Positions 46,225-64,000 of a stretch of 64,000 nucleotides of DNA are shown here, piece after piece (the stretch's first letter is position 1; each line of letters opens with the position of its first letter). A program made the translations under genes and the position numbers. This DNA comes from Gammaproteobacteria bacterium. GTDB lineage: Bacteria > Pseudomonadota > Gammaproteobacteria > GCA-001735895. Location of the stretch: assembly GCA_029862125.1 (NCBI GenBank), contig JAOTXY010000001.1, forward strand, positions 1-64,000. The letters are read 5' to 3'. The notes beneath the pieces are model-generated. The model was given only the letters and a program-made list of their open reading frames with translations. It was not told the origin of the DNA and made no database searches.

Positions 46225-48069
46225 ATGCATCTGAATCAACGTTTTGGCTTGACCATGATTATCGCGACCCTGCTGGTCATGGTTGCGACTGTCTATCTCC
46301 TGTTCGACTTTCAGCGTAACAATCGCGAGGATATGGCACGCGCCCAGGGCCTTGAATTAGCACGCCTTTTGAGCGGCATGTCATGGAGTGAGCTGGTACC
46401 GCAAGCAGGCAGAAAGGGGCTACTCGCAGTGCTTAAGCAAGGACAAAGCAACCCCGACTTTGCTTATGGCGCGGTGGTTGACATCGATGGCAAGGTCGCA
46501 ACCGAGGTCACTCGTTCGGACGTCATCGTGCCTGTCGGTGATATTATCAACGAACCAACCGGCTGGTTAGGACAACGTGTTCTCTCCGCGAATGACGCCG
46601 CTAGCCAGGTTAAATTTATCGAAACACATGCCCCGGTATTTGACCAGGGTGTGCATATGGGTTTTGTACGGCTTGGATATTTCCGACCCGGTTTCAGTTT
46701 CAGCTACTACGAAATGCCATTTCTGGCGTCTGTGATGCTGCCGATATTCCTGCTGGTACCTTTCTTTTACTTCATGCTACGCCGCGAAATCAAACCGCTT
46801 AAAGACATCAGCGAGCGATTTGAAAATATAGCCGAGCAGGGAGGTTTAACCCAGATCGAAATGCCTCCAAGCCAGGCATTGAACGATTTCATGGAGCAGG
46901 TCAGCGACTACATCGATGCTACCCAAACCCGGATCGAAGTGTTAAACCAGGAACACGAAGATCTGACGATGTCGAGCAAGTTGCTGACCTATAAAAATAA
47001 TCGCGTCGACGCCATCCTGCAGAATTTTCCCGACGCCATCATGGTGATCGACGAAGCCGGCGAAGTCAGTTACGCCAACGCTAAAGTTGAACGTTTGCTC
47101 GGGATTGATGCCGAAGCAATGCTCGGCAAGAAAACCCGCGAGTGGTGCAAAGATCCGCAGATTATCCCGCTACTGACTTTCGGTGACGTCAAATCGAACC
47201 TGCAGGCCAACCAGGATACGGTTCAGGTCAGGCTGGATGATAACAGTGAAAAATCTCTACAGTTCAGTGTCTACCCGTTGTTCACGCCAAACAATGAGAG
47301 CAAAATCCTGGGCCGCCTGGTAGTTATCTGCGACGTATCCGAGAGCCACGAGATGCGCCAGCGCCAGAACGAATTTATCTCGCATATCTCGCATGAACTA
47401 AAAACACCGCTCAGCGTGCTGTCGATGTACAGCGAATCGCTTTTGACCGAGGGCTCCGACGATGAAGCCTACCGCATCGAGGCGGTGAACGTGATTCATG
47501 ACGAGGTCGAACGGCTGTCGACCCTGATCAATAACCTGCTCGCAATCAACCAATACGAACTCGGTGGGGTCATCGCGCAGCGTAATCATGTGCGCTTACA
47601 CGAGTTTCTCGAGGATGCGTTTGAAAATATCACCAAGGCCAGGGGTATCAAAGATCTTGAGTTCGACCTCGATATTCCGCGTGAAATGAGCATGGTTTAT
47701 ATCGATAAGGATTTATTCCGAATAGCAGTAAATAACCTGCTGACCAATGCGATCAAGTACAGCAAACCTGGTGGCAAAGTCAGCATGAGCGCCAGTGAAA
47801 ACGAAGACAGCATCGAAATCGTGGTCAGCGATGAGGGTTATGGCATCGCCGAGACCGATATAAAGCAGATATTTAATAAATTTTTCCGCTCAACGGACAA
47901 AAACATCAGAAATCAGACCGGGCATGGCCTGGGCCTGTCGTTGGCGCGCCAGATCGTGTTAATGCACCACGGCGACCTGACCTGTAGCAGTGAACTCGGC
48001 AAGGGTAGTCGCTTTGTTATTCAACTGGAGAAGGTTTCGACACAGATTATGGATGCCGCCGCGTCATGA
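46225..48069 (+). CDS. PAS-containing membrane sensor histidine kinase
   Basis: A 614-residue kinase. TM1 lies at about residues 8-27 (MIIATLLVMVATVYLLF), an extracytoplasmic domain at 28-165, TM2 at about 166-188, and a HAMP-like linker at 189-235. A PAS domain follows (about 265-375, with DAIMVIDEAGEVSYANAK), then HisKA with the phosphorylated His390 in FISHISHELKTPL, and HATPase_c with NNLLTNAIKYS, DEGYGI and GHGLGLSLA. Its stop overlaps the response regulator by 4 bp. It is the first gene of the secretion/pilus run, so its input likely gates that system. Confidence 0.92.
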   Translation: MHLNQRFGLTMIIATLLVMVATVYLLFDFQRNNREDMARAQGLELARLLSGMSWSELVPQAGRKGLLAVLKQGQSNPDFAYGAVVDIDGKVATEVTRSDVIVPVGDIINEPTGWLGQRVLSANDAASQVKFIETHAPVFDQGVHMGFVRLGYFRPGFSFSYYEMPFLASVMLPIFLLVPFFYFMLRREIKPLKDISERFENIAEQGGLTQIEMPPSQALNDFMEQVSDYIDATQTRIEVLNQEHEDLTMSSKLLTYKNNRVDAILQNFPDAIMVIDEAGEVSYANAKVERLLGIDAEAMLGKKTREWCKDPQIIPLLTFGDVKSNLQANQDTVQVRLDDNSEKSLQFSVYPLFTPNNESKILGRLVVICDVSESHEMRQRQNEFISHISHELKTPLSVLSMYSESLLTEGSDDEAYRIEAVNVIHDEVERLSTLINNLLAINQYELGGVIAQRNHVRLHEFLEDAFENITKARGIKDLEFDLDIPREMSMVYIDKDLFRIAVNNLLTNAIKYSKPGGKVSMSASENEDSIEIVVSDEGYGIAETDIKQIFNKFFRSTDKNIRNQTGHGLGLSLARQIVLMHHGDLTCSSELGKGSRFVIQLEKVSTQIMDAAAS

Positions 48070-48455
48070 ATAAAATTTTAATCGCAGACGATGAACCGCA
48101 TGTACTGCGGGTACTGAAACTCTCGCTCGAGAAAGAGGGCTACGCGGTGGAAACCTGTGCCAACGGCAAGGAGGCCCTCACCCAGCTCGAACAGCAACAT
48201 CCCGATATCCTGATTACCGATATCCAGATGCCGCAGATGACCGGCGAGGAATTGTGTCGGCATATCAAGCAGCATATGCCCGAGCGCAAATTCCTGATTT
48301 TCGTACTCACCTCGCGCACCGAAATCGAACACCGCGAGTGGTCACGCGATATCAACAATTTACTGTTTCTCGAAAAACCGGTCAGCATCCGCAACCTGTT
48401 GGAAAAGATCGAGGGTTACTTTTCTGGAGCATCCGATAGTTGGAGGGCATCCTGA
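48066..48455 (+). CDS. Stand-alone CheY-like response regulator
   Basis: A 129-residue receiver domain with the acidic pair in IADDEPHVL, phosphoacceptor Asp52 in ITDIQMPQMTG, the switch Thr/Ser region VLTSRTE and the invariant Lys in FLEKPVS. There is no output domain, so phosphorylated regulator must act by protein contact, perhaps with the GGDEF-EAL protein or the STAS-ATPase encoded directly downstream. It shares its last base with the start of the next gene. Confidence 0.92.
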   Translation: MNKILIADDEPHVLRVLKLSLEKEGYAVETCANGKEALTQLEQQHPDILITDIQMPQMTGEELCRHIKQHMPERKFLIFVLTSRTEIEHREWSRDINNLLFLEKPVSIRNLLEKIEGYFSGASDSWRAS

Positions 48456-50653
48456 TGGCTACCGTGCCTGACAGCAGCGTTCATTTTGATCATTATCTTA
48501 CCCTGCTGAAGGGTTTTTGCCCGGATGTGCGGGCGATGGTCGTGTTCGATCACGAGCAAAGTTGCATCTGGCAGGGCGACGCCAGTCCCCTTGATCTGGA
48601 TCAGGTGGTACCCCAGCTGAAGTCATTCCGTGCAGGTGACAGCGATGACGTACGGGTAACACTTGGCGACAACGCTAGCCTCGAGCTGATCAACCTGAGA
48701 AACACACACGGGGAAATAGCGCTAACCCTGGGTATCGAGGCCGTGGACAAGACTGTACAAGCGGTGGCGGCGAACCAAAATATTGGCTTGCTGAATGAAT
48801 TTTTACTGGCTGACTACGAACAAAGCCTGGCGCTCGCGACCAAGGAAGACGAGCTCAACCATATGACCGACGAGCTCACCCGACGTTACGAAGAACTCAA
48901 CCTGATCTACAAGGCCGAGGACCAGGCGCTCAATATTTACCATGGACGCGAACTGTTGCGACAGCTGGTGATGAATACATCGCGTTTCCTTAACGTCGAT
49001 ATTATTTTTCTCTACATCGCGGGCAAAAATATCGCGATGCATAAATACAAAAACGATAATCCGTTGTTCGAATCGGACAAACTGTTTGACTATCTGCGTG
49101 ACTCGGTTTACCCGTTACTCGAAACCGATCCGCAGTCCCTCGTCATCAACCATATCGAAGACGCCAGAATGCATAATTTCACCCAGAATACGCCGTACAA
49201 ACATGTCGTCAGCCCGGTCGTCAACGCCGAAAATCAGGTTATCGGACTGCTCGCGATTGCGAGCCAGAATTTCAGTGTTGATTTCTCCAATAGCGATCGA
49301 AACCTGCTCGACGTGATGTCGAAAAAGGCCTCCAAGATCGCCCAGTCCCATTTCGATCCCTTAACTGGGCTTGAAAATAGCAACAGTTTTGAACTCATCA
49401 TCAAGGATTTGTTAAAACAATCTTCGGGTACAGATGTTAACCACGCCATCGCTAATGTTGACATTGATCGTATGGCGGTGGTGAACGATATCAGCGGACG
49501 CGATGTGGGTGATCTGTTGATTAAGAAGGTTGGGCAGAAACTCGCCAGCATGGTGCGCTCGCGCGATGTGGTGGCGCGCATCGGTAGCGACAAGTTCGGA
49601 GTGTTACTGGAAAATTGCGATTTGCCGACAGCACAAATCGTCATGAAAAAAATTTCCCATGCGGTCTCTGCCATAGATTTTAAATGGGAGGGCGAGTCAC
49701 ACGAAATCAGCGTCAGTATCGGTATCGCCCCGATCACCGCCGAAACGCAGTCGGTGACCAGCCTCATGAATGCTGCCGAAACTGCGCGTAACGTGAGCAA
49801 GGAACGTGGTCGTAACAGCATCCATGTGCTCGATCTGGAAGACAGCAATTTACTGGAGCGCAAGGACCAGATTCGCTGGGTTGGGCTAATTCAGGCAGCG
49901 TTGCGCGAAGACCAGTTCATGCTGTATGCGCAATTGATCAAGCCTTTAAAGACAAAAACGGCTAAACCACATTACGAACTACTGTTACGTATGCGGGGTA
50001 ATGATGGCAGTGTAATTCCACCTGGGAAGTTTCTGCCCGCCGCAGAAAACTTTTACCTGATGTCGAGCATTGATTACTGGGTGATCGGCCAGGCTTTCAG
50101 CGAGCTAGCCAAGCATAACCGGGAATCCGGACAGGGATGTGAGGTCTCGATCAACCTGTCGGGACAGTCGCTGAGCGACCCGGTCGGTTTTGCCGCTTAT
50201 ATTGGTAATAAACTCGAGCAACATCAGTTGGACCCTAGTGATATCTGTTTCGAAATTACCGAGTCATCTGCGATCGAAAATATTGATGATGCCCGCTTTT
50301 TTATCGATCAGGTAGGAGCTTACGGTTGTCAGTTTTCACTCGACGATTTTGGCACCGGCCTCAGTTCCTTTGCCTACCTCAAAAACCTTAAAGTCAGTTA
50401 CCTGAAGATCGATGGCAGCTTCGTTACCGACATCGTCACAGACCCGGTCAGCGAGAGCATGGTCTCGGCGATCAACCAGGTGGGGCATGCAATGCAGTTG
50501 CAAACGATTGCCGAATTCGTCGAAAACGATGCGATTGCGCAAAAGCTTGTCGACATCGGTGTCGATTATGGACAGGGTTATGGTTTCGGCAAGCCCGTAC
50601 CATTCGATGAAATCCTATCCTCGCTGCCGAGCTCGAAATCGAAGTCGGCGTAG
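48455..50653 (+). CDS. GAF-GGDEF-EAL protein (degenerate GGDEF, intact-looking EAL)
   Basis: A 732-residue cytosolic signalling protein. After an N-terminal domain of unknown type (1-115) and a coiled stretch (about 125-160), a GAF-like domain spans about 165-305. The GGDEF domain (about 305-465) has GSDKF at the signature and no RxxD inhibitory site, so cyclase activity is doubtful. The EAL domain (about 485-725) has ELLLR for EALLR, and DDFGTGLSSF and DYGQGYGFGKP are well kept, so c-di-GMP hydrolysis or binding is plausible. GGAGGG precedes ATG 48455; a longer TTG start is unnecessary. Confidence 0.88.
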   Translation: MATVPDSSVHFDHYLTLLKGFCPDVRAMVVFDHEQSCIWQGDASPLDLDQVVPQLKSFRAGDSDDVRVTLGDNASLELINLRNTHGEIALTLGIEAVDKTVQAVAANQNIGLLNEFLLADYEQSLALATKEDELNHMTDELTRRYEELNLIYKAEDQALNIYHGRELLRQLVMNTSRFLNVDIIFLYIAGKNIAMHKYKNDNPLFESDKLFDYLRDSVYPLLETDPQSLVINHIEDARMHNFTQNTPYKHVVSPVVNAENQVIGLLAIASQNFSVDFSNSDRNLLDVMSKKASKIAQSHFDPLTGLENSNSFELIIKDLLKQSSGTDVNHAIANVDIDRMAVVNDISGRDVGDLLIKKVGQKLASMVRSRDVVARIGSDKFGVLLENCDLPTAQIVMKKISHAVSAIDFKWEGESHEISVSIGIAPITAETQSVTSLMNAAETARNVSKERGRNSIHVLDLEDSNLLERKDQIRWVGLIQAALREDQFMLYAQLIKPLKTKTAKPHYELLLRMRGNDGSVIPPGKFLPAAENFYLMSSIDYWVIGQAFSELAKHNRESGQGCEVSINLSGQSLSDPVGFAAYIGNKLEQHQLDPSDICFEITESSAIENIDDARFFIDQVGAYGCQFSLDDFGTGLSSFAYLKNLKVSYLKIDGSFVTDIVTDPVSESMVSAINQVGHAMQLQTIAEFVENDAIAQKLVDIGVDYGQGYGFGKPVPFDEILSSLPSSKSKSA

Positions 50654-50659
50654 ATAATC

Positions 50660-52741
50660 GTGTCCGACGCGAATATAGTCAGTATTGAAGAAGGCTTAAG
50701 CCCGGGAACGGTCACTAAAAACCGGGTCGGGGCAATGACCCATCTGTTCCCGCGTGGAAATCTGACCGACCCCGAATTGCTGGACGCGTTAAGTGCGGCG
50801 GTCGACGAAAGCATTGCCAGCCAGGAAGTACAGTTGATCATCGACATGGTGAGCGTATCCCTGATCGACAGCAAAGCCCTCGAATCCCTGTTTGACCTGC
50901 GCCAGGACCTTGCCAGGGCCGGTGGCTGGTTGAAAGTCACCAATGCCAAGCCGCTGATCCGTGACATATTCCTGGTAACCGGCCTGGACCAGGTCATCGA
51001 TATCGTCAACAGTTTTAATATCGATAAACCCGAGGTGGTCAGGCCTGACACGACCAGCAGCGAGGGTATTCGCATAGGTGATCTGCTGGTTAACAAGGGA
51101 CTGCTATCCAAGGAAAAAGTCGAAGAGGCGATCGTACTGCAGAAAAAGAGCGGTAAGCGTCTGGGGCAGATTATCGTCAGCAAGGGCTGGGTCAGCGAAG
51201 ACGTTTTCCTGACCGCACTCGGTGAACAGTTGGGGATTCCCCACATTGTTATGCGCCAGGGACTGGTTGATCACGACGTTTTTACCCAGCTAGAGTTAGA
51301 GGTGTCACAAAGACTCAAGGTGGTACCGATGTTCCTGGTGCACGGTGAGCTTACATTGGCGACGTCGGATCCACAGGCCATTGCCAGTTTCAGCGAAATC
51401 GAAGAGCGGCTGGACTGCAAGATCCGCCCGGTACTGGTTCGCAAAAGCGACATCGTCAAGAGCCTGAACGAAGCTGGTTCCGGCAGTATCTACGATGCCG
51501 AGAATCTCGAGGATCTCGACGACGATTTCGAGTTTATCGACAACACGCCTCCGGATGATTATACCGGAATCGATGAAATGGCAGCGGGTAGCCCGGTCAT
51601 CAACATGGTGAATTCGATTATTCAACGCGCGGTGCACGACAAGGTCAGCGATATCCACATCGAGCCCTCGCAAAAAAAGTGTCGCGTGCGGTTCCGCATC
51701 GACGGTTTGCTGTACGAAGTCATGACGCCGCGTATCGAGCTGCACCCGGCCCTGGTGTCTCGCCTCAAGGTTATGGCCAACCTCGATATCGCCGAACGCC
51801 GCATGCCACAGGATGGTCGCATCCAGGTGCATACCCAGGGACGCTCGGTAGACCTGCGCTTCAGCTCCCTGCCCGGGTTACACGGGGAAAAAGTGGTGCT
51901 GCGCGTACTCGACAAGAACCAGTCAATTCTCGATATCGAAAAACTCGGTATGCAGGAACCCAATGTCATTACCTACAAGCGCCTGCTGGATCGCAGTTAC
52001 GGCTTGATCCTCGTCACCGGGCCCACCGGTAGTGGTAAAACCACGAGCCTGTACTCGGCGATTAACTATCTCAACAGCCTCGAAAAAAACATCGTCACCA
52101 TCGAGGACCCGGTCGAATACCAGCTCGATATCGTCAACCAGAACCCGGTGCGCGAAAATATCGGCCTGAGCTTTGCCAAGATGCTCAAGCACGTACTGCG
52201 CCAGGACCCCGACGTGGTCATGGTCGGTGAAATACGTGAACGTGAAACCGCGGAAATCGCGGTGCAGGCGGCCCTGACCGGGCACCTGGTGTTGTCCACG
52301 CTGCACACCAACGACAGCATCGGCGCGGTCACGCGCATGATCGACATGGGGGTCGAACCTTACCTGCTGTCCTCGGCCCTGATAGGTGTGGTCGCGCAGC
52401 GCCTGGTGCGCTCGATCTGCCCCAATTGCAAGACCGAGTTTCTGGCGAGCCCCGAGATGATCGAGAAATACGGCTGGCAGGACCAGGGCAAGGTGCGCCT
52501 GTCCAAGGGCCGCGGCTGTGCCGAATGCTACGATGCCGGCTATCGCGGGCGTATGGGTATCCACGAAATTATCGAAACCAATCCCGAGCTGCAGCGCCTG
52601 ATCATCGCCAACGCGTCGCGCGATGAACTCACCGATTATCTGAACCAGCACGAGATCAAGCTGTTGTTCGATGATGGTATCGATCGCGTGCGCGAAGGCC
52701 AGACCACGATTGAAGAAATCTGGCGCGCGGTCAACAGCTAG
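50660..52741 (+). CDS. GspE/PilB-type secretion ATPase with N-terminal STAS domain
   Basis: A 693-residue fusion. Residues about 20-120 form a STAS domain (LIIDMVSVSLIDSKAL with Ser71 at the phosphorylatable position, then GGWLKVTNAKPLIRDIFLVTGLD). Residues about 130-280 are a T2SSE/MshE N-terminal domain (IGDLLVNKGLLS, LGEQLGIP). The rest is the AAA-like motor with Walker A GPTGSGKTT (454-462), VMVGEIRERETAEIA, and a four-Cys zinc site in CPNC and CAEC. It begins with GTG 6 bp after the EAL gene. The motor powers pseudopilus assembly through the GspF protein 15 bp downstream. Confidence 0.93.
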   Translation: MSDANIVSIEEGLSPGTVTKNRVGAMTHLFPRGNLTDPELLDALSAAVDESIASQEVQLIIDMVSVSLIDSKALESLFDLRQDLARAGGWLKVTNAKPLIRDIFLVTGLDQVIDIVNSFNIDKPEVVRPDTTSSEGIRIGDLLVNKGLLSKEKVEEAIVLQKKSGKRLGQIIVSKGWVSEDVFLTALGEQLGIPHIVMRQGLVDHDVFTQLELEVSQRLKVVPMFLVHGELTLATSDPQAIASFSEIEERLDCKIRPVLVRKSDIVKSLNEAGSGSIYDAENLEDLDDDFEFIDNTPPDDYTGIDEMAAGSPVINMVNSIIQRAVHDKVSDIHIEPSQKKCRVRFRIDGLLYEVMTPRIELHPALVSRLKVMANLDIAERRMPQDGRIQVHTQGRSVDLRFSSLPGLHGEKVVLRVLDKNQSILDIEKLGMQEPNVITYKRLLDRSYGLILVTGPTGSGKTTSLYSAINYLNSLEKNIVTIEDPVEYQLDIVNQNPVRENIGLSFAKMLKHVLRQDPDVVMVGEIRERETAEIAVQAALTGHLVLSTLHTNDSIGAVTRMIDMGVEPYLLSSALIGVVAQRLVRSICPNCKTEFLASPEMIEKYGWQDQGKVRLSKGRGCAECYDAGYRGRMGIHEIIETNPELQRLIIANASRDELTDYLNQHEIKLLFDDGIDRVREGQTTIEEIWRAVNS

Positions 52742-52756
52742 GAACCGGGATAAAGC

Positions 52757-53878
52757 ATGGCGATTAACACCAGACAGCACGCGCTCGTGGCACAGGCATC
52801 AACCTCGTTGCCCGTGTCAAAACCAAAATTTCAGCTCAAGCAGGCCGTCGGTGACAAGGAACGCCGCTTCTTCACCGAGCAAATGTCTTTACTGCTGGAG
52901 ACCGGCACCCCGCTACAGCAGAGCCTGCAGGCAATGAAAAAGCAGATTGAAAACCCGGCGATGCTCGAGCTGCTCGATCAACTCATCGACGATATCGCCC
53001 AGGGCGTACAGTTTTCGACCGCGCTGGCCAAGCATCCCACGGTTTTCTCCACCACCTATACCAACCTGGTTGCGGCGAGCGAGGAAGGTGGTTTCATGCA
53101 CGAAGTACTGCAACAGCTGCTGGCCCTGGACGAGAAACGCGAAGAGTTGCGCAAGACCATGGTTTCGGCGCTGTCATACCCGGTATTCCTGCTGGTGTTT
53201 GCGTTGGCCGTAGTGGTGTTCGTGCTGGTGGTGGTGTTTCCGAAGTTTGCCGACCTGTTTTCGCAAATCCAGGACCAGTTACCCGTGACCACCAAATTCC
53301 TGATGGCCACCAGCAATGTTTTGAAAGATCACTGGATCGAGTTGACCGTTGGGCTGGTGGTGTCGATCGGCGGTTTCAAGTTCTGGTCCGCGACCGAAAA
53401 CGGCATCCGCAAGCTCGACTGGGCCAAATTGAATTTCCCGCTGCTGCGGCACATTTTCGTCCAACTTTACCTGGTCAATACGATGCGGGTGTTGAGCATG
53501 TCGCTCGGCAACGGTGTGGGCATGATGGATTCGCTGCATGCCTGCAAGTTTGTCGTTAAAAACAGCCTGTTCCAGGAATTTATCGGGCAGGTCGAAAACC
53601 AGGTCGAAACCGGCAACGGTATCGCCGCGGGCTTTCAGAATACCAGTTTCATTCCGCCGATCGTCGAACAGATGATCAGTACCGGCGAAGAAACCGGAAA
53701 TTTACCTAAAGTTATGAGCCGCCTGGCCGATTATTTTGAAGGCGAGCTTTCCAGCAAGCTGCAAACCCTGTCGCGACTCGCAGAACCGGTCATGTTGCTG
53801 ATTATGGGGGGTGTCGTGGGATTGATCGTAAGTTCGCTGATATTGCCGATTTTCAAACTAACCCGGGTCGTTGGGTGA
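52757..53878 (+). CDS. GspF/PilC-type inner-membrane platform protein
   Basis: A 373-residue T2SS_F protein with two homologous cytoplasmic domains (about 35-155 and 240-345) and three membrane segments (YPVFLLVFALAVVVFVLVVVFP, a second at about 195-215 and MLLIMGGVVGLIVSSLILPIF at the end). Family residues include FFTEQMSLLLETGTPL, AASEEGGFM, GMMDSLHAC and STGEETGNLP. It is the partner of the STAS-ATPase and anchors the growing pseudopilus. A 119-bp gap before the next gene is the only sizeable break in the operon core. Confidence 0.93.
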   Translation: MAINTRQHALVAQASTSLPVSKPKFQLKQAVGDKERRFFTEQMSLLLETGTPLQQSLQAMKKQIENPAMLELLDQLIDDIAQGVQFSTALAKHPTVFSTTYTNLVAASEEGGFMHEVLQQLLALDEKREELRKTMVSALSYPVFLLVFALAVVVFVLVVVFPKFADLFSQIQDQLPVTTKFLMATSNVLKDHWIELTVGLVVSIGGFKFWSATENGIRKLDWAKLNFPLLRHIFVQLYLVNTMRVLSMSLGNGVGMMDSLHACKFVVKNSLFQEFIGQVENQVETGNGIAAGFQNTSFIPPIVEQMISTGEETGNLPKVMSRLADYFEGELSSKLQTLSRLAEPVMLLIMGGVVGLIVSSLILPIFKLTRVVG

Positions 53879-53997
53879 GGAAAATCAATAGTTTATGTTA
53901 ATTGAATCACGGTTTTCAGCGATGCAGGCAAAAATTTGAAATATCGTGACTATACTCAAAAAAGCTAGATTTACTTGAATTTTAAAGGGTGAGAAAA

Positions 53998-54570
53998 ATG
54001 CAACCAATCCGCAACGCAATCCAGAAGGGATTTACCCTCGTCGAACTGTTGATCGTGGTTATCATACTGGCGCTGCTGGCTGCCATCGTGGTGCCGCAGT
54101 TTGCGTCTTCCACCGATGACGCCAAGCTCGCATCGCTGGATACCACGCTAGGTAACGTGCGTTCCTCGATCGACCTGTACTTTCAGCAACACGGTGAATA
54201 CCCGGGTGCGCTGACCGCGGTAGACGCGGCCTGTGCTGACACCACTGGTACCGGCACCGGTGGTGCGGGTGCACAAGGCGTGCAGGCCTTTGCCGACCAG
54301 ATGAGTCTGTATACCGACGCCGATGGTGGCGCCTGCAGCGTCAAGGATGCCAACTTCAAATTCGGGCCCTATCTCAAGAAGGCAACGCTGCCTGCCAATC
54401 CGATCACCACAGTGGCCACGCTCGAAGTGATCAATACCGGCGACCTGGTGATGGCCGGAAGCGGTGCCAACCTCGGCTGGAAGTACGATATCGTGGTCGG
54501 CAAGTTTATTGCCAACGATACCACCGACCCGGATGGCGCTGGTCCCGAAGTTTCCTACGACCAACGCTAG
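53998..54570 (+). CDS. Major pseudopilin GspG-like
   Basis: A 190-residue prepilin with a short basic leader and class-III cleavage site QKG-FTLVELLIV, including the Glu at +5, then the hydrophobic helix IILALLAAIVVPQF. The globular part has HGEYPGALTAVD, two cysteines (about 79 and 108) that may pair, and a C-terminal NDTTDPDGAGPE segment compatible with the calcium site of GspG. ATG 53998 with AAAGGGTGAG as ribosome site is preferred over GTG 53989. It is longer than classical GspG (about 140 residues) because of a Gly/Thr-rich loop. Confidence 0.9.
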   Translation: MQPIRNAIQKGFTLVELLIVVIILALLAAIVVPQFASSTDDAKLASLDTTLGNVRSSIDLYFQQHGEYPGALTAVDAACADTTGTGTGGAGAQGVQAFADQMSLYTDADGGACSVKDANFKFGPYLKKATLPANPITTVATLEVINTGDLVMAGSGANLGWKYDIVVGKFIANDTTDPDGAGPEVSYDQR

Positions 54571-55166: not shown

Positions 55167-55585
55167 AACAACGGCAAGCGGGTTTCTCCTACCTGGAACT
55201 GCTGATCGCGACCCTGCTGATCGTGATCATGCTGGTGCCGGCGCTCGACGCTATGCAAAGCGGTATCCAGGGCAGTGGCATCCATACGCAACTGGCGCAG
55301 AACCAGTATCGAATGATCTCGAAGATGGAAGAGACCCTGGCGCTGCCGTTTGCGCAGTTACTGGAACAGGCTGACCTGGTCGCCGACCCGACCGTGTTGA
55401 TACCCGCACCCTTTTCTGATCCCGCAGGTACCGAATCCCGCCGCCTTGTGTTTCTGGCGCGTTACGATGGCGACAACGCCGATGGTAACGACAATCCGTT
55501 TAATGGTACCGATGAGGGTTTGCTGTGGGTACGGATTACGATCGAAAACAGCCCGCGTGCGCTGGAGACCGTGATCGTTGAATAG
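55163..55585 (+). CDS. Minor pseudopilin GspI-like
   Basis: A 140-residue protein with signal RQAG-FSYLELLIATLL and Glu at +5. The remaining sequence is short and acidic, with an unusual DGDNADGNDNPFNG stretch (about residues 100-113) before the last strand, comparable to the Asp-rich insert in the next gene. GspI proteins form the tip trimer with GspJ and GspK. Order H-I-J-K and 4- and 8-bp overlaps identify it. There is little else to recognise. Confidence 0.8.
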   Translation: MKQRQAGFSYLELLIATLLIVIMLVPALDAMQSGIQGSGIHTQLAQNQYRMISKMEETLALPFAQLLEQADLVADPTVLIPAPFSDPAGTESRRLVFLARYDGDNADGNDNPFNGTDEGLLWVRITIENSPRALETVIVE

Positions 55586-56597
55586 CGTCCCACCAACCCG
55601 GTCGTCGCCGCGACTTCTCGCTGGTAAGCACGGTTTCACCTACGTCGAACTGATGATAACGCTCGCGATCGCGTCGCTGATCATTCTCGGCCTCACCGGT
55701 GTGGTCGGACAGGCACTGCAGTCGCAGGATACGGTCTCGGCGACCAATCAGTTGACGCGTGATGCGCGCTTTGCGATGCAACGCATGCTGCGCACGATTA
55801 CCCATTCGCGTCGTTTACTGCTTCCATTCAGGGATAAACCGGCATCCAACTGGCCGGAAAATATACGTGAGCAAACCGTGCCGCCCTCCGCACCGATCGG
55901 AGATAGCACCTTCGCCACCGCGGTGCTCGCGGTGACGCTGCCGGCTTATGTTGACCTGGACAACGACGGCTTCCCGGATGCCGACGACGACAGGGATGGC
56001 CTGATCGACGAAGATTTACCGAATGATAACAACCACGATTTCTTTCCCGGCATCATGCTCATCGACGACGACGGCGATGGTCAGATCGATGAGAACCCTT
56101 CCTACTGGTGGGACGATGACGAAACCAACGCGGTTTACAACGAGGATCCGCTCAACGGTATTGACGACGACGATGATAATAACGTCGATGAAGACACGGC
56201 CAGCGACCAGAATGGTGACGGTTGCCCGGGAGTCTGTGGTGTCGACGATGATGGCGACGGATCGATCGATGAAGGCAACGACGATGACGATGACGAGGAT
56301 GGAAATACTTTCGACGATCCTTATGACCCAGTTGTCTTTTACCTGAACAGTGGGTCCCTGGTCGAACGCATGCCAGCGCCCTGGGACACCGACGGTATCA
56401 GCGTGCCCGATGGGCCGGTCGATGGGCGAGATTTTATCGAATCGGTGATTGCCGACAACGTCACCCGGTTTCGCGTCGAGCGCCTCGATAACGGTAGTGT
56501 GTTCGAAGTCATTGATCTCACGCTCGAACTCACCAGTCCGCTCACCGGCGAAACCGTGAGCCTGCAAGCCCAGGTCCGGGTCGGGGGTGCGTTGTGA
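55578..56597 (+). CDS. Minor pseudopilin GspJ-like with Asp-rich calcium-loop insert
   Basis: A 339-residue GspJ-like protein starting at TTG 55578 (no ATG available), with signal GKHG-FTYVELMITLA and Glu at +5. Residues about 126-250 form an insert of repeated acidic loops: DLDNDGFPD, DDDGDGQIDE, DDDDDNNVDE, DQNGDGCPG and DDDGDGSIDE. These DxDxDG loops resemble EF-hand or thrombospondin type 3 calcium sites, with two Cys that may close one loop. The following GspJ fold resumes with VFYLNSGSLVER and VTRFRVERLDNG. Usual GspJ length is about 200-240, so the insert accounts for the excess. Confidence 0.88.
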   Translation: MNSVPPTRSSPRLLAGKHGFTYVELMITLAIASLIILGLTGVVGQALQSQDTVSATNQLTRDARFAMQRMLRTITHSRRLLLPFRDKPASNWPENIREQTVPPSAPIGDSTFATAVLAVTLPAYVDLDNDGFPDADDDRDGLIDEDLPNDNNHDFFPGIMLIDDDGDGQIDENPSYWWDDDETNAVYNEDPLNGIDDDDDNNVDEDTASDQNGDGCPGVCGVDDDGDGSIDEGNDDDDDEDGNTFDDPYDPVVFYLNSGSLVERMPAPWDTDGISVPDGPVDGRDFIESVIADNVTRFRVERLDNGSVFEVIDLTLELTSPLTGETVSLQAQVRVGGAL

Positions 56598-59500
56598 TCC
56601 GCTCGGTAAAACAAACCGGCTATATCCTGCTGCCGGTGATCGTCGTGATCACGGTGGTGGCGGCGATCGCGTTGCTGATGAATACCGAAAGCGCGCTTGA
56701 AAGCAATACCGCCGGCAGCGAACTCGACGCGCAGCAGGCACAATACGTTGCCGAGGCGGGATTGAATCATGCCCTGTGGCTGGCGCAACAGCAGGGCTGT
56801 GGCCCGTATAGCAATCTGACCGACGAGCCGCTGGATAACGATAAATACACCTCCAACCTGACCACCGACCTCGGCAGCACCACCAGCTATTCGAGTACCG
56901 TGGACCAAGATACGTGGATCACAAGCAACCAACCGGACGACAATAAAGGCAGCGATGGCGTCCTGCATGTCGGTTTCAATAGCGGTGATAGCGAACGCCC
57001 GTTACTGCGCTTCGATCTGTCTTCAATTCCGGTGAAGGCCGCGATTCTGTCAGCCACGGCCTGGTTTTATGTCGACCAGTCCCATCCCGAAGGGGCGGTC
57101 GACATCCATCGCATCACTGCCGACTGGATCGAGACTGACGCTACCTGGAACACGATGAACGCCAACATGGATAGCGCCGTGATCACCAGCATTCCGCCTC
57201 AGCCAACCAGCGATGTATGGGTTGCGGTCAATCTCACCAGCCAGGTGCAGGCCTGGATTAACGACCAGCCCAACTATGGCATTACGCTGAACTCGACCAG
57301 CGAGGGCGTCGATGGCAGATACGATAGCCGCGAGTCTGCCAACGCGCCCTACCTCGAAGTTATCGTCGGTACACCGCCGACGTCACCGGCGCTGCTGAAA
57401 GCGGTCGGTATGCTCGCCAACGGCGTCACGCGAGACATCACTCGCAACGATGTGGTGTTGTATCAACATCCACCGGGAATGCTCCAGCTGCAGCCTGGTG
57501 CGGCGGATGGGGAAGACGCCGAAATCTGGGATCAGGCACCCAACAATAACTACGGCGCCGCTGATGAAACCTGGGTTTCATCAGCGGTCAGTGATACCAC
57601 GCGTTCACTGTTGCGCTTCAACCTGGGTGCGATACCGGCCGGTGCGAGAATTATGCGTGCAGACCTGTCCCTGGAGCGGGAGAGCGGTTCCGGGGCGGAC
57701 CAGCCGGTGTCGGCACATCGCATCGTGAACCCGTGGAGCGAAGCCTCGGTGACCTGGAACCAACGGGAATCCGGCACCAACTGGGACACCGCTGGTGCCG
57801 ATTTCGATAACATGGCGATTACGACGACTCCGGTCGGTCCGGTAAACCAGCGCTATGCCTGGAACATTACGTCGCTGGTGCAAGGCTGGGTTGACGGCAG
57901 TTACCCGAACTACGGCGTTGCACTGGTCGCCGCGATCGCGGGAATGCCGGGTGAGCGATTCTATACCAGCGACGAAACAGATGAGACGCGGCGTCCGCGC
58001 CTGATGATTAACTATACCTGCGCCTGCGACGAAATTTGCGCGAGGCCACAGGGCGGCGGCAACCTGCTGATGGTGGTGATCAATCCAACCACGCTGGTGG
58101 CCGAGGATCAAAAGGCGAAAGACCTGTTCGAATCCTGGGGCTACACGGTTTCCGTCATCAGCGAAAGCGCCAACCAGTCCACCTATGATTCCCTAATCGC
58201 GCTTAACGATGTTGTGTTTATCTCGGAAACCGTGAATTCGAACTCGGTCGGTACCAAGTTGGTCAACGCCCCGATCGGCGTCGTCAGCCAGGATGGCGAT
58301 TACAATCCCGATCTCGGACTGGCCCCGGGTGCGTCGCTCAAAATCGGCGGCGATATCGATATCGTCAGTACCGATCACTACATTACACAGCCGTTCGCCG
58401 TCGGAACCCACCGGATCTATACCGCCGACATGGAACAGGCCATCGTCAGCGGCAGCCTGACCGCCGATCAGCAGACGCTCGCCGAGAACGCCGGCGATGG
58501 TTCGCTCGTGGTGCTCGACAGGGGCGACGCAATGGAGGGTGGTGGCACTGCCGCAGGGCGCCGCGTGATCCTACCGCTTGGCACCCGTTACCGCTTCGAC
58601 TGGGATTACCTCAACGCCAACGGCCGGCTGCTGGTGCAGCGTGCGCTCGCCTGGGGTATGTCCAAGGACAAGTTCAGCAAGGGTAATGTCTTGCTAGTGG
58701 TACCGGACCCGGCGAGCCTGAACTCGCGTGACAGCTCCAAGCAGGCACTGATCGAATCCTGGGGTTACACGGTCAACCTGATCGACGACAGCGATAGCCA
58801 GGCCAACATCGATGCGGCGGCGGCGGCGAACGATGTCATTTACGTTTCCGGGTCGATCTCCGGCGGCGCGTTGGCCGACAAGCTGACCGGTTCGCCGACG
58901 CCGATCGTCAACGAGTTCAACGGCAAGCTCGACAACTTCGGTTTTTCCAGCTCGACTGGCAATACGGTATCGGCCGATACATTTACGTCAACCAATGCGG
59001 CGCATTATATTTCTGAAACCTTCGCCGGCGCCGCGACGACTGTATTCTCGTCCAGCCTGACGATGCCGGTACCGGGCGGCACGCTGGCGCCGGATTTGGA
59101 GACCGTTGGCGAAACTGCTGGTGCGGTAGCGGCGCTGGTGACTCTCGATACCGGCGCGCAGCGCTGGGACGGAAATCCGGCACCGGCGCGGCGGGTACAC
59201 CTGCCGTTCGGCAGCGCTGAGACCAGCCAGCTGACCGCCGACGGTGAAAACCTGATGCGGCGCGCGCTCGAATGGGCCGGCGGCGCCGGATGCGTTGACA
59301 TGCAACCGCTGCTGCTGGTCGTCGGTGATGCGGCGACGCTATCCAGCAAGGACGATGGCATGAAGACCCTGATACGGTCCTGGTGTTACAGCGTTACTGT
59401 CATCGATGACGGCGACAGCCAGGCTAATTTCGATGCCGCAGCCGCGGCGGTGGACGTGGTCTACGTGTCGGGAACTACATCGGGTCCGTCACTACAGGAC

Positions 59501-61537
59501 AAATTGACCGGTTCACCGACACCGATCGTGAACGAGATCAACGGTAAGCTGGATAATTTTGGTTTTTCCAGTTCGACTGCCTCGAGCGTGAGCGCAAGTG
59601 CTTTTAGTGCAACCGATGCGTCGCATTATATTTCCGAACCCTTCACCGGTAATCCGGTCACTGTATTTACGACCGACCTGGCGATGCCGGTACCCGGCGG
59701 TACGCTGGCGCCGGACCTGCAGATCGTCGGCGAAACCACCGGTGCGATACCGGCGCTGGTGACTCTCGATACCGGCGCGCAGCGCTGGGACGGAAATCCG
59801 GCACCTGCGCGGCGGGTACACCTGCCGTTCACCAATGCGGAACCGAGCCAGTTGACCGCAGATGGGGAAATCCTAATGCGGCGATCAATCGAGTGGGCCG
59901 GGTCCCCCTTACCCGGCCCGATCGCGCACTGGAAACTCGACGATGCGGTTGGGATGACAGCAATCGACTCGGTCGGCGGTAACGACGCGACGCTGAACGG
60001 TAATCCCGCCTGGACCACGGGGGTTGCGGACGGTGCACTCGAGTTTGACGGCAGTGGTGACTATGCAACGACCGATAATCCCTTTACCCCGCCGCCAGTG
60101 GGTACCGTTTCGTTCTGGATGAAAGTGCCCGGGTCACCGGCATCGCACGGTCGCATACTCGGGCTCGACGACACCTGGGAAATCCGCCATGTCACGACCG
60201 GCACCCCCGACGGTATTGCTTACGGGCTGGTGTTCGACCTCGGTGTTACCGGCGTCAATACCGAATTTGTCACCACCGTCACTGTCGATACACCGGACCA
60301 ATGGTATTTCGTGGCCGCGACCTACGATACCAACACCGATGCCTACCAGGTCTACCTGGACGGCGTGCTGCACAAGAGTGGAACCTATCCTTCCGCATTA
60401 GCGGTGCCGGCTGCCAACCCGCTATCGCTGGGTACCAGAACCGGTTCCAGCAATTACTTTACCGGTACTCTGGATGACGTGCAGATTTACGATCGCATCC
60501 TGAGCGCGGGCGAGATTGCCGAATTCTATTCCGCCGGTGCACCCGCTGTAGCCGCTTACACCGAACTTTACGAACCCTGGACCGCGGCCACGCCGGACAA
60601 CTGGGAAACGGTTTCGCTGGTAACTTTCGGCGTGCCGGCCAACGCGGTGGTCGAAGTTGCCGTAATCAACGAGGCGACCAGCGCACAACGCTGGGGCGGA
60701 GTGCGTGCGGTCGGATCGACGCTGGATCGGCGTTTGCAATTGCAGGAAGCCGAGGCCGGCGGCATCGATGTCGTCACCATGCACGTGCAGGCCGATGTCA
60801 GCAGCCAGATTGAACATTATTCCGATAACACCAGCCAGATCAGTTTCATCCTGCTCGGTTACTGGACCGGCGCGGTTTATGTCGAATTGATGGATCCTTT
60901 CACTGCCAATGCCAGCAATAGTTGGGTCGAGGAAAGCCTCGCCGATGATGGCCTCGGACCTAACCAGGTGGCCGAAATCGCGATCGTCAATACAAATACC
61001 GGAGCCGAACGACTGGCCGGGGTTCGCCCCTCGGGCGCCACTTATCAACGGCGATTTATGCTGCACGAAGCCGAATCGGGTGGCGTCGATGCTTTGTCGA
61101 TGATGGTCACCACCGATGCGTCATCGATCGCCGAGGTCTTCGCTTCGAGCAGCGCGGATGTCGATTTCTACGTGCTCGGCTATTGGGACACGTCGCCGGG
61201 AACCTACACCGCGACCGGGGGCGCCCACGGTCAGGTATCGTCGCCGATGAGCTGGGAGACGATCGATCTGAGCAGCTACGGTGTTCCGGTGGATTCGGTC
61301 GCACAGTTCGTACTCGCCAACGAAAACCAGGGCACCGAAAACAGCATGCGCGTGCGTGAAGTCGGTTCGACGATCAATAACAGGGCCCTGCTGCTGCACG
61401 AAGCCGAGGCCGGCGGTTCCGATCTCGGCAGCCTGCACGCCAACGTCGATGCCAGCCAGCAGGTGCAGTGGGCCGCGGCACAGGGCCCAGCGGGTGGTTT
61501 CTTTTACCCGGTCGGCTGGTGGGTGTTGTCGCCTTAA
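56594..61537 (+). CDS. Giant GspK/PilX-like minor pseudopilin with adhesin-type mosaic
   Basis: A 1647-residue protein starting at GTG 56594, overlapping gspJ by 4 bp. The N-terminus KQTG-YILLPVIVVITVV is a prepilin signal lacking Glu+5, as in GspK, followed by a short GspK/PilX-like AQYVAEAGLNHALW. Then come two DNRLRE-like domains (about 99-265 and 298-475), three roughly 207-residue ThuA/amidotransferase-like repeats (about 485, 695 and 902 onward; LLVVxDxxxL, GYTVxxIDD, VVYVSG), a LamG/concanavalin domain (about 1107-1315; IAHWKLDD, GALEFDGSGDY) and three ~107-residue repeats (from 1321, 1428, 1536). It is probably the surface tip. GspK is normally about 300 residues. Confidence 0.88.
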   Translation: MIRSVKQTGYILLPVIVVITVVAAIALLMNTESALESNTAGSELDAQQAQYVAEAGLNHALWLAQQQGCGPYSNLTDEPLDNDKYTSNLTTDLGSTTSYSSTVDQDTWITSNQPDDNKGSDGVLHVGFNSGDSERPLLRFDLSSIPVKAAILSATAWFYVDQSHPEGAVDIHRITADWIETDATWNTMNANMDSAVITSIPPQPTSDVWVAVNLTSQVQAWINDQPNYGITLNSTSEGVDGRYDSRESANAPYLEVIVGTPPTSPALLKAVGMLANGVTRDITRNDVVLYQHPPGMLQLQPGAADGEDAEIWDQAPNNNYGAADETWVSSAVSDTTRSLLRFNLGAIPAGARIMRADLSLERESGSGADQPVSAHRIVNPWSEASVTWNQRESGTNWDTAGADFDNMAITTTPVGPVNQRYAWNITSLVQGWVDGSYPNYGVALVAAIAGMPGERFYTSDETDETRRPRLMINYTCACDEICARPQGGGNLLMVVINPTTLVAEDQKAKDLFESWGYTVSVISESANQSTYDSLIALNDVVFISETVNSNSVGTKLVNAPIGVVSQDGDYNPDLGLAPGASLKIGGDIDIVSTDHYITQPFAVGTHRIYTADMEQAIVSGSLTADQQTLAENAGDGSLVVLDRGDAMEGGGTAAGRRVILPLGTRYRFDWDYLNANGRLLVQRALAWGMSKDKFSKGNVLLVVPDPASLNSRDSSKQALIESWGYTVNLIDDSDSQANIDAAAAANDVIYVSGSISGGALADKLTGSPTPIVNEFNGKLDNFGFSSSTGNTVSADTFTSTNAAHYISETFAGAATTVFSSSLTMPVPGGTLAPDLETVGETAGAVAALVTLDTGAQRWDGNPAPARRVHLPFGSAETSQLTADGENLMRRALEWAGGAGCVDMQPLLLVVGDAATLSSKDDGMKTLIRSWCYSVTVIDDGDSQANFDAAAAAVDVVYVSGTTSGPSLQDKLTGSPTPIVNEINGKLDNFGFSSSTASSVSASAFSATDASHYISEPFTGNPVTVFTTDLAMPVPGGTLAPDLQIVGETTGAIPALVTLDTGAQRWDGNPAPARRVHLPFTNAEPSQLTADGEILMRRSIEWAGSPLPGPIAHWKLDDAVGMTAIDSVGGNDATLNGNPAWTTGVADGALEFDGSGDYATTDNPFTPPPVGTVSFWMKVPGSPASHGRILGLDDTWEIRHVTTGTPDGIAYGLVFDLGVTGVNTEFVTTVTVDTPDQWYFVAATYDTNTDAYQVYLDGVLHKSGTYPSALAVPAANPLSLGTRTGSSNYFTGTLDDVQIYDRILSAGEIAEFYSAGAPAVAAYTELYEPWTAATPDNWETVSLVTFGVPANAVVEVAVINEATSAQRWGGVRAVGSTLDRRLQLQEAEAGGIDVVTMHVQADVSSQIEHYSDNTSQISFILLGYWTGAVYVELMDPFTANASNSWVEESLADDGLGPNQVAEIAIVNTNTGAERLAGVRPSGATYQRRFMLHEAESGGVDALSMMVTTDASSIAEVFASSSADVDFYVLGYWDTSPGTYTATGGAHGQVSSPMSWETIDLSSYGVPVDSVAQFVLANENQGTENSMRVREVGSTINNRALLLHEAEAGGSDLGSLHANVDASQQVQWAAAQGPAGGFFYPVGWWVLSP
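59131..59209 (+). repeat. 79-bp direct repeat within the giant gspK gene, copy 1
   Basis: This stretch is repeated at 59752-59830 with a single mismatch in 79 bp, 621 bp (207 codons) apart. It encodes the ALVTLDTGAQRWDGNP region of ThuA-like repeats 2 and 3. Flanking parts of these repeats are less similar in DNA, suggesting a recent local conversion. Confidence 0.85.
59752..59830 (+). repeat. 79-bp direct repeat within the giant gspK gene, copy 2
   Basis: Second copy of the element at 59131-59209; it reads cacctgcg where copy 1 has caccggcg. Confidence 0.85.
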
Positions 61538-61605: not shown

Positions 61606-62832
61606 ATGAAAATAAATATTCCCAAACAAATACGTTCGGTATGGTCGAGTACGCACTATGATTCGCCCGAGCTGACGCGCTTTGCCCGACGCAAAGCGGT
61701 TGCGGAGGCGCGCAAGGGGCTGGCGGCGATGAGTATATTGACCATGGGGATTTTACTGATCGAAGGCACGCTCTATGTCAAGTTTGCGCTCGACCCGATG
61801 TACCTCTACACCTGCGCGATCCTGGTGTTGTTGTCGCTCAATATGGTGTTTGCCTCGCGCACCGTCGGCGATCCCCAGGCATTGCATTTACTCGGTGTCA
61901 CGCTGCTGGCGGTCTCCGGTAGCGCTTTTATATTACTGGCGCACTACCAGCATGTTTTTCACCCGATGTTGTTTGCCAGTGTCGCGATGCTGTTCATTGT
62001 GATACCGATGATGTCCTGGGGCCTCGGCGAAGCGCTCGCGGTGACGCTGCTGATCTATACCATGTTTACCCTGTCGACGCTGGAGGCCAATTATAATTTT
62101 GCCGATCAAAGCCTGTGGACCTTGCAATTCATTATGCTCGGCGCGAGCACGGTCAGCTTGTCGCTGGTGGTGCGCAACGTCAGGCTACGCAAGCACGACG
62201 TCAAAGCCCAACACGACCTGGTGGTCGCGCATGCGCAGATCACGGATTTGTCAAATCGAGATCCGTTAACGAGTGCCTGGAATCGACGCTATTTTGACCT
62301 CGAATTCGAGCAATACCTGAAGCAGTGTCGTGAAAATCAAAATCAATTCCATTTCATGCTGCTCGATGTCGACGATTTCAAGCTGATCAACGATGATTGC
62401 GGGCACGAAAGCGGCGACCAGGTGCTCAAGAATATCGGTCAGGCGTTTAGTAGTGTAATCGACGACCATGGCAGCCTGGTACGCATGGGGGGTGATGAAT
62501 TCGCAGTGATTTTCGCCGACCTCGATCCCAAGGTTATTGCGATTCGGGGATTGAAAATATTCTGTGATTTAAATGCTGCGAGTAAATATGACCTGATAAA
62601 GCAGGCAAGCCTCAGCATCGGAGTCGCTAGTGTGCCGCCTGATATCGAAGTCAGCTATCGCCAGCTTTACAAACAGGCAGACCTCGCGCTTTACCGGGCA
62701 AAAGCGCTAAAAGATAATAATCCTGCACCACCGAATATTGTCATCAGTATTTTGCACGACCCCGATGATGTTCTCAGCAGTACTCGAAGTTTGTGGAAAA
62801 TGCCGGAAAGCGTTAGCAAGGCCGCCAACTAG
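61606..62832 (+). CDS. Membrane diguanylate cyclase (GGDEF)
   Basis: A 408-residue protein with about six membrane segments (residues 40-200), a coiled linker (VRLRKHDVKAQHDLVVAHAQ) and a complete GGDEF domain (about 225-385: DLSNRDPLTSAWNRRYFD, LLDVDDFKLINDDCGHESGD, RMGGDEFA). No RxxD inhibitory site precedes the signature. It should make c-di-GMP, opposing the EAL protein at the other end of the operon. It starts 68 bp after the giant gspK gene in the same direction. Confidence 0.92.
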   Translation: MKINIPKQIRSVWSSTHYDSPELTRFARRKAVAEARKGLAAMSILTMGILLIEGTLYVKFALDPMYLYTCAILVLLSLNMVFASRTVGDPQALHLLGVTLLAVSGSAFILLAHYQHVFHPMLFASVAMLFIVIPMMSWGLGEALAVTLLIYTMFTLSTLEANYNFADQSLWTLQFIMLGASTVSLSLVVRNVRLRKHDVKAQHDLVVAHAQITDLSNRDPLTSAWNRRYFDLEFEQYLKQCRENQNQFHFMLLDVDDFKLINDDCGHESGDQVLKNIGQAFSSVIDDHGSLVRMGGDEFAVIFADLDPKVIAIRGLKIFCDLNAASKYDLIKQASLSIGVASVPPDIEVSYRQLYKQADLALYRAKALKDNNPAPPNIVISILHDPDDVLSSTRSLWKMPESVSKAAN

Positions 62833-62916
62833 GCGCGTCTGTTTTATCACCTGATTGTTAATGAATCGGCGCTTGCTGCCGATCTATTGACTAATTACCG
62901 ATTCGGATGCCTCCGT

Positions 62917-63780
62917 ATGAGCAATCAATGGGAAAAGGTCACCATCCAGGCCAACCTGGTGACGTTGCCGGATATCTACTGGCAACTCAAGGAAATTCTC
63001 GATAGCCACGACTACTCGATGCAGGACGTGGCGCAATTAATCGTCTACGACCCGGGATTGACGGCGCGCATGTTGCGCATCGTCAATAGTGCTTATTTCG
63101 GCTTCGCCGCTAAGATTGATACTGTCACTCATGCGGTTTCGATTCTCGGAGTGCAACAAATCCGTGACCTGGTGTTAGCGACAGCGATTGCCGATGCGCT
63201 CGGCGACTACGAATGCGAACATCTTGACGTCAAGCAATTCTGGCTGCGCAGTGTTTATCGCGCGATTGCCGCGCGTAACCTGGCGGGCGTCTGCAGCCTG
63301 ATGGACGGTGAGCGCATGTTTGTGGCGGGCCTGTTGAGCGGCGTCGGTCACCTGATCATGTACCAGTCGATACCGGTACTGGCGCAGCAGGCACAGCGCG
63401 AGGCCGAGGCCAACGGAAAACCGCTGCATCGGGTCGAGCGCGAAGTGATTGGTTTCGATCATGCCAGGGTGGCGAGCGGGTTGATGAAGAACTGGCAGCT
63501 GCCTGACAGCCTGGTTGCGGTGATCGAGCATCACCTGGAACCGGACCCGGCGGCAGATTACCTGCTCGATACCGCGATTGTGCATATCGCCGCTTTGATT
63601 GGTGAGGCGTTTGCGCAAAATCGGCCACTGGACGAGGTTTTGGTGAATGTAGATGGCCATGCCTGGGATGCCACCGGGCTCGATATCGGCCGCTGCGAAG
63701 CCGTCGATGTCGAGGTTTCCGAGCAGTTAAACAGCGTCGTCAACATGTTATTTCCGAAACTGCAACGTGCAGCGGGATAA
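62917..63780 (+). CDS. HDOD-domain protein
   Basis: A 287-residue HDOD protein (domain about 15-215) with LPDIYWQLKEIL, IVYDPGLTARMLRIVNSAYFG, VSILGVQQIRDLVL and the FVAGLLSGVGHLIMY segment. HDOD domains are degenerate HD relatives found in signalling proteins, generally without proven catalysis. The longer frame from TTG 62887 is not needed; ATG 62917 fits the family start. It is last in the co-directional run, 84 bp after the diguanylate cyclase, and probably integrates with the same c-di-GMP circuit. Confidence 0.88.
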   Translation: MSNQWEKVTIQANLVTLPDIYWQLKEILDSHDYSMQDVAQLIVYDPGLTARMLRIVNSAYFGFAAKIDTVTHAVSILGVQQIRDLVLATAIADALGDYECEHLDVKQFWLRSVYRAIAARNLAGVCSLMDGERMFVAGLLSGVGHLIMYQSIPVLAQQAQREAEANGKPLHRVEREVIGFDHARVASGLMKNWQLPDSLVAVIEHHLEPDPAADYLLDTAIVHIAALIGEAFAQNRPLDEVLVNVDGHAWDATGLDIGRCEAVDVEVSEQLNSVVNMLFPKLQRAAG

Positions 63781-64000
63781 GTTCTAATAGTCGCTAGATC
63801 AACCGAGTTAAATAATGCTTTGTGACCTGGTGTCAACGCAGCCGCAACGGGCCTGCCGTGGGCGAATAATTTATATCCCGTCTGCTAGTCGGACCTGGCG
63901 GGCTGGACACCCATCACAAAAGGCGGAAATACCTTTCAATATAACTGGTTTTTAGCCGATAAAGGACTATAAACGGTGTAATGTCCCGCATATAAGTCCA

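What the first reader, a model, noticed from the sequence alone, without database searches (positions are those of the whole stretch)
50660..52741. STAS domain fused to a GspE/PilB secretion ATPase
Residues 20-120 read as a STAS domain with Ser71 in the phosphorylatable position, followed by the standard MshE-N and motor domains. Known GspE/PilB proteins start with the N1/MshE-N domains. STAS domains in anti-anti-sigma and stressosome proteins switch by Ser phosphorylation or bind small ligands. A STAS switch on a pilus motor would be a new way to gate extension.
Basis: partly seen in the sequence, partly recalled or inferred. Interest (0 to 1): 0.75.

Follow-up and report, generated by a model that had tools for sequence, protein, structure and literature searches.

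The report
Pilus extension motor with STAS domain
In a small group of environmental proteobacteria, the motor of an adhesive pilus carries an extra regulatory (STAS) domain ahead of its usual c-di-GMP sensor; the fusion is real, old and always kept, but the suggested serine-phosphorylation switch is not supported by the genomes.

Summary
The 693-aa ORF at 50660-52741 is STAS (18-120) + MshEN c-di-GMP domain (138-273) + T2SSE motor (310-689), by profile and by predicted structure. It is not a frame error: the same fusion occurs in 34 sequences from 33 genomes, forms one clade, and all 15 clade motors found in a 369-genome class sample carry STAS. STAS is under purifying selection.

It belongs to a conserved locus: histidine kinase, receiver, GGDEF-EAL, STAS-PilB, PilC, pilins, a minor pilin with carbohydrate-binding domains, then (with variable order) diguanylate cyclase, HDOD, PilM-N-O-P and secretin. 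This reads as a c-di-GMP-controlled adhesive type IV pilus, distinct from two other PilB/MshE-like systems in the genome.

The phospho-switch reading is weak. Ser71 is kept in 32/34, but no serine kinase or phosphatase sits in the operon. Three genomes keep Ser without a clear SpoIIE-type phosphatase, while one with a strong RsbW-like kinase has Gly. I favour an MlaB-like protein-docking or allosteric role layered on c-di-GMP control. The STAS partner is unidentified. New variant of a known kind.

The parts
46225..48069 (+). PAS histidine kinase (HisKA + HATPase_c), first gene of the operon
   Evidence: Pfam PF00512, PF02518, PF00989; phospho-acceptor His kept in 27/27 homologues
48066..48455 (+). 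Single-domain receiver (CheY-like)
   Evidence: PF00072 1.9e-26; acceptor Asp and Lys kept in 27/27
48440..50653 (+). GAF-like N-terminus + GGDEF (degenerate GSDKF here) + EAL with all motif residues checked
   Evidence: PF00990, PF00563; EAL motifs ExLxR, N, E, DD, K, E, Q in all or nearly all of 29 homologues
50660..52741 (+). STAS-MshEN-T2SSE pilus extension ATPase (STAS-PilB), 693 aa
   Evidence: conserved in 33 other sequences
50711..51019 (+). STAS domain, residues 18-120; Ser71 at 50870-50872
   Evidence: PF01740 1e-9; TM1442 Z 16.8
51071..51478 (+). MshEN c-di-GMP-binding domain, residues 138-273, both 24-residue motifs
   Evidence: NF053729 62.4 bits; 5HTL Z 17.2
51587..52726 (+). T2SSE motor, residues 310-689, with Walker A GPTGSGKTT
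   Evidence: PF00437 2.6e-137
52757..53878 (+). PilC/GspF platform protein
   Evidence: PF00482 1.1e-51
53989..54570 (+). Major-pilin-like (GspG position) prepilin
   Evidence: N_methyl PF07963
54582..55166 (+). GspH-like minor prepilin
   Evidence: PF07963, weak PF12019
55163..55585 (+). GspI-like minor prepilin
   Evidence: Weak N_methyl and syntenic homologues
55578..56597 (+). GspJ-like minor prepilin
   Evidence: Weak N_methyl and syntenic homologues
56594..61537 (+). 1647-aa protein at the GspK position with CBM96, ConA-like lectin and Disaggr_repeat domains; likely tip adhesin
   Evidence: syntenic homologues
61606..62832 (+). Diguanylate cyclase with intact GGDEF
   Evidence: PF00990 3.6e-37; motif at residue 295
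62887..63780 (+). HDOD protein
   Evidence: PF08668 1.4e-58
64000..64000 (+). First base of PilM; PilM, PilN, PilO, PilP-like and secretin follow beyond the window at contig C164:64000-68208

Best explanation
The protein is the extension ATPase of a dedicated, adhesin-bearing type IV pilus of the MSHA type. Shown by sequence or structure: an intact MshEN domain and an intact motor, with a STAS domain ahead of them on a variable linker. Inferred from known families: c-di-GMP binds MshEN and licenses pilus extension, as in MshE; the locus's diguanylate cyclase raises, and its EAL enzyme lowers, the local pool. Inferred and least sure: the STAS domain is a protein-docking and allosteric module on the hexamer's outer N-terminal ring. 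It would bind an operon partner, most likely the phosphorylated single-domain receiver or the EAL protein, so that the two-component signal and c-di-GMP are read on the same motor. Its conserved Ser-bearing alpha-2 face would act as the interface, as Thr52 does in MlaB on the ATPase MlaF, and not as a substrate of an RsbW-type kinase.
For: STAS and MshEN by profile and fold. Both MshEN motifs kept in most copies. Operon with HK, receiver, GGDEF-EAL and pilus genes in nearly all loci long enough to show it. Receiver acceptor residues kept in 27/27 and EAL motif residues in nearly all of 29. STAS present in all 15 clade motors, one clade, dN/dS 0.06-0.19. STAS-on-ATPase precedent MlaB-MlaF, where Thr52 lies at the interface and no phosphorylation is known (PMC7367683). 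c-di-GMP on MshE promotes extension (PMC7096442).
Against: No partner of the STAS domain is identified; the receiver and EAL protein are candidates by linkage only. Two loci keep STAS without the usual arrangement: L081 lacks HK, receiver and GGDEF-EAL beside it, and L082 has HK and receiver but no adjacent GGDEF-EAL. The full-length model is too weak (pLDDT 66.9, pTM 0.41) to place STAS on the motor.
Confidence: 0.5

Rival explanations
1. Partner-switch phospho-gate: an RsbW-type kinase phosphorylates Ser71 and a SpoIIE-type PP2C removes it, releasing or blocking the motor.
For: Ser71 kept in 32/34 at the SpoIIAA/RsbV position. The window's genome has one REC-SpoIIE-HATPase_c_2 protein on contig C86, and most fusion genomes have SpoIIE proteins.
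Against: No such kinase or phosphatase in the operon. Ser kept in G166, G185 and G229, which show no strong SpoIIE match (none in G229; 6.9e-5 and 3.6e-7 in short ORFs of G166 and G185) and no strong RsbW-like hit; Ser is Gly in G223, which has an 84-bit RsbW-like hit, and Asn in G050. Residue -1 is Asn in 23/34. The genome has a canonical stand-alone STAS (C32) that may be the C86 protein's own partner.
Confidence: 0.15
2. Structural role: STAS stabilises or orders the N-terminal ring, or ties the motor to PilM/PilN or PilC, without switching.
For: Always present in the clade, even where the regulators are not adjacent (L081); STAS diverges faster than the motor, as for a docking domain; MlaB stabilises MlaF (PMC7367683).
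Against: Strong conservation around the Ser-bearing helix (positions 62, 71, 77, 88, 89) fits a specific interface, though this alone does not exclude a static one.
Confidence: 0.25
3. STAS binds a small ligand (nucleotide, lipid or acyl carrier protein) that gates the motor.
For: Other STAS domains bind ligands or ACP (YchM-ACP, 3ny7, among the fold matches).
Against: No ligand pocket or motif was identified here.
Confidence: 0.08

Closest known systems
MshE (MSHA pilus extension ATPase, Vibrio cholerae)
   Same: MshEN c-di-GMP domain followed by T2SSE motor; locus with PilM/N/O/P-like proteins, secretin and prepilins
   Different: MshE starts with MshEN and has no STAS; this locus also carries HK, receiver, GGDEF-EAL and DGC
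PilB with PilZ/FimX (Xanthomonas, Pseudomonas)
   Same: Extension motor controlled at its N-terminal domain, with a degenerate GGDEF + EAL protein and two-component inputs around it
   Different: FimX-PilZ act in trans; here STAS is part of the motor and the EAL keeps its motif residues. FimX orthology was not tested
MlaB-MlaF (STAS protein on an ABC ATPase)
   Same: STAS domain associated with a transport ATPase; Ser/Thr at the same position
   Different: Separate chains, ABC ATPase, lipid transport
SpoIIAA / RsbV anti-sigma antagonists
   Same: STAS fold and Ser at the phosphorylation site
   Different: Stand-alone proteins with an RsbW/SpoIIAB-type kinase as partner; here fused to a motor without such a neighbour

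Membership tests
STAS domain (PF01740) | Profile score over the curated cut-off | tested here: met
   38.5 bits against 22.6
STAS domain (PF01740) | STAS fold | tested here: met
   TM1442 Z 16.8, rmsd 1.8 over 107
Partner-switch anti-sigma antagonist (SpoIIAA/RsbV) | Score over the NCBIfam ant_ant_sig cut-off | tested here: not met
   TIGR00377 38.2 bits against 53.45
Partner-switch anti-sigma antagonist (SpoIIAA/RsbV) | Phosphorylatable Ser/Thr conserved | tested here: inconclusive
   Ser in 32/34, Asn and Gly in the others
Partner-switch anti-sigma antagonist (SpoIIAA/RsbV) | Adjacent RsbW-type kinase or SpoIIE-type phosphatase | tested here: not met
   Neighbours are HisKA kinase, receiver, GGDEF-EAL and pilus genes
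Partner-switch anti-sigma antagonist (SpoIIAA/RsbV) | Ser71 is phosphorylated | not testable with these tools
   Needs biochemistry
MshEN c-di-GMP receptor | Two 24-residue RLGxx...Q motifs with 5-residue spacer | tested here: met
   NF053729 62.4 bits, residues 138-190; conserved positions
MshEN c-di-GMP receptor | Binds c-di-GMP | not testable with these tools
   Predicted from motif and from fold match to 5HTL
PilB (TIGR02538) equivalog | Score over the curated cut-off | tested here: not met
   570.7 against 675.65
GspE (TIGR02533) equivalog | Score over the curated cut-off | tested here: not met
   575.4 against 630.25
GspE/PilB motor superfamily (T2SSE, PF00437) | Motor domain with Walker A | tested here: met
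   2.6e-137, GPTGSGKTT present
Type IV pilus (MSHA-like) locus | PilC, prepilins, PilM/N/O, secretin in one locus | tested here: met
   PilP identified by weak similarity only

The most novel reading that the evidence does not exclude
A type IV pilus extension motor integrates two signals on one polypeptide: c-di-GMP through MshEN, and a two-component (phospho-receiver) signal through a fused STAS domain that acts as a docking switch outside any sigma-factor pathway.
Probability: 0.3. Interest if true: 0.75.

Novelty: new variant of a known kind. Interest (0 to 1): 0.5.

Why it matters
How the N-terminal domains of pilus extension motors read signals is an open question (PMC11656802). Here one motor carries a c-di-GMP sensor and a STAS domain in cis, next to its own kinase, receiver, cyclase and EAL enzyme, so the inputs can be separated by simple domain deletions. 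It would also extend STAS control of ATPases from MlaB-MlaF to secretion and pilus motors. No paper describing this fusion was found in the library searched.

Tried and rejected
Frame error or ordinary N1 at the N-terminus: rejected. Decaying passenger domain: rejected by purifying selection and by presence in 15/15 clade motors. GGDEF-EAL as an exclusive partner of STAS-PilB: rejected, because its N-terminal region also occurs in proteins not beside STAS-PilB (G062, G209, G206 C16). Placing STAS on the motor with the full-length model: model too weak. Literature searches for STAS with PilB, GspE, MshEN or pilus assembly gave nothing relevant. In the plasmid search with the whole protein, the five listed matches start at residue 115 or later, so none covers STAS; the search reached its 5000-record limit and the rest were not read. 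Promoter scan gave no more than chance.

Full report
The observation. The ORF at 50660-52741 reads through as 693 residues, starting 6 bases after the stop of the GGDEF-EAL gene. Pfam finds STAS, MshEN and T2SSE in that order; NCBIfam adds the c-di-GMP motif at 138-190. The STAS match improves to 1e-9 when residues 1-125 are searched alone. AlphaFold on 1-290 with 34 sequences gives mean pLDDT 84.3 and a STAS topology with Ser71 at the start of helix alpha-2. Foldseek and VIA-align put residues 14-124 on anti-sigma antagonists and 136-275 on MshE and PilF c-di-GMP domains.

How common it is. In the window's order 16 of 41 genomes carry the STAS signature. In a sample of 369 genomes of the class, 16 genomes in about a dozen families have it fused to a long ORF. 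In a phylum sample of 398 only the window's genome and one genome of another class had it in a long ORF. The public scan returned 16 loci, titled Gammaproteobacteria or, for L039, the Olavius algarvensis Gamma 3 endosymbiont. I assembled 34 sequences from 33 genomes. The motor alone, at E<=1e-130, found 15 copies in 14 genomes of the class sample, all at loci that carry STAS. With 12 non-STAS motors as comparison, the STAS motors lie on one side of one branch (99/99); closer non-STAS sisters outside this sample are not excluded. dN/dS between close relatives is 0.06-0.19 for STAS, 0.05-0.11 for MshEN and 0.006-0.06 for the motor.

The locus. Upstream are a PAS histidine kinase, a single receiver and a GGDEF-EAL protein; downstream PilC, four prepilins and a 1647-aa protein at the GspK position with CBM96, lectin-like and Disaggr_repeat domains, then a diguanylate cyclase, an HDOD protein, and, beyond the window, PilM, PilN, PilO, a PilP-like protein and a secretin. 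The order HK, receiver, GGDEF-EAL, STAS-PilB recurs in most homologous loci. Exceptions: L081 lacks the three upstream genes beside the motor and L082 lacks an adjacent GGDEF-EAL. Receiver and kinase acceptor residues are kept in all 27 copies examined of each, and the EAL motif residues in nearly all of 29, while GGDEF is degenerate in most. The genome has two other PilB/MshE-like loci on contig C18 and three PilT-family genes on C103, so retraction could be supplied in trans.

Is it a phospho-switch? Ser71 is kept in 32 of 34, Asn in L081 and Gly in L087; residue 70 is Asn in 23 and Asp in 6. No RsbW-type kinase or SpoIIE-type phosphatase lies in the operon. The genome has one REC-SpoIIE-HATPase_c_2 protein on C86, and a stand-alone STAS on C32 that could be its partner. 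Among fusion genomes, G229 has no SpoIIE match, and G166 and G185 only weak matches in short ORFs; all three keep Ser. Their best HATPase_c_2 hits are 32-37 bits (in G166 this is the operon's own histidine kinase) against 65-91 bits in G206, G223 and G398; yet G223 has lost the Ser. Because the C86-type protein itself scores only about 34-41 bits, absence of a kinase in these genomes is likely, not proven. A conserved Ser/Thr is also found in MlaB, where it lies at the interface with the ATPase and no phosphorylation is known (PMC7367683).

Mechanism. [quoted passage not shown] cholerae (PMC7096442), and the MshEN motif here is intact, so c-di-GMP gating is the firmest inference. The STAS domain's role is inferred: a docking or allosteric module, with the receiver or the EAL protein as the first candidates by linkage. 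The alternatives are a static structural role, a phospho-switch and ligand binding.

Relation to known systems. By NCBIfam thresholds the motor is neither a PilB nor a GspE equivalog. It works like MshE and belongs to the GspE/PilB superfamily; STAS membership is met; membership of the partner-switch antagonists is not. The architecture is a new variant of a known kind. A review of PilB control does not mention STAS, and the main text of the paper that defined MshEN does not either; the library searched lacks most subscription journals.

Noticed in passing
56594-61537: A 1647-aa protein at the GspK position of the pilin cluster carries CBM96, ConA-like lectin and Disaggr_repeat domains; its size varies widely among relatives. 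It looks like a pilus-tip adhesin for carbohydrates.
   Followed up: partly
L136:3880-5577 (G000 contig C86) and L140:8458-8760 (contig C32): A REC-SpoIIE-HATPase_c_2 protein and, elsewhere, a stand-alone STAS protein near a CheY-like and a GGDEF protein: a possible ordinary partner-switch pair in the same genome.
   Followed up: partly
L137 and L138 (G000 contig C18): Two further PilB/MshE-like ATPases with PilC and secretin genes about 13 kb apart in the window's genome.
   Followed up: no
L082:14767-16815: In G076 a protein joins the N-terminal region of the GGDEF-EAL protein to a histidine-kinase-like part, near a STAS-PilB locus that lacks an adjacent GGDEF-EAL.
   Followed up: no
L081:8828-10882: The STAS-PilB copy without adjacent HK, receiver and GGDEF-EAL is also the one with Asn in place of Ser71 (one case only).
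   Followed up: partly
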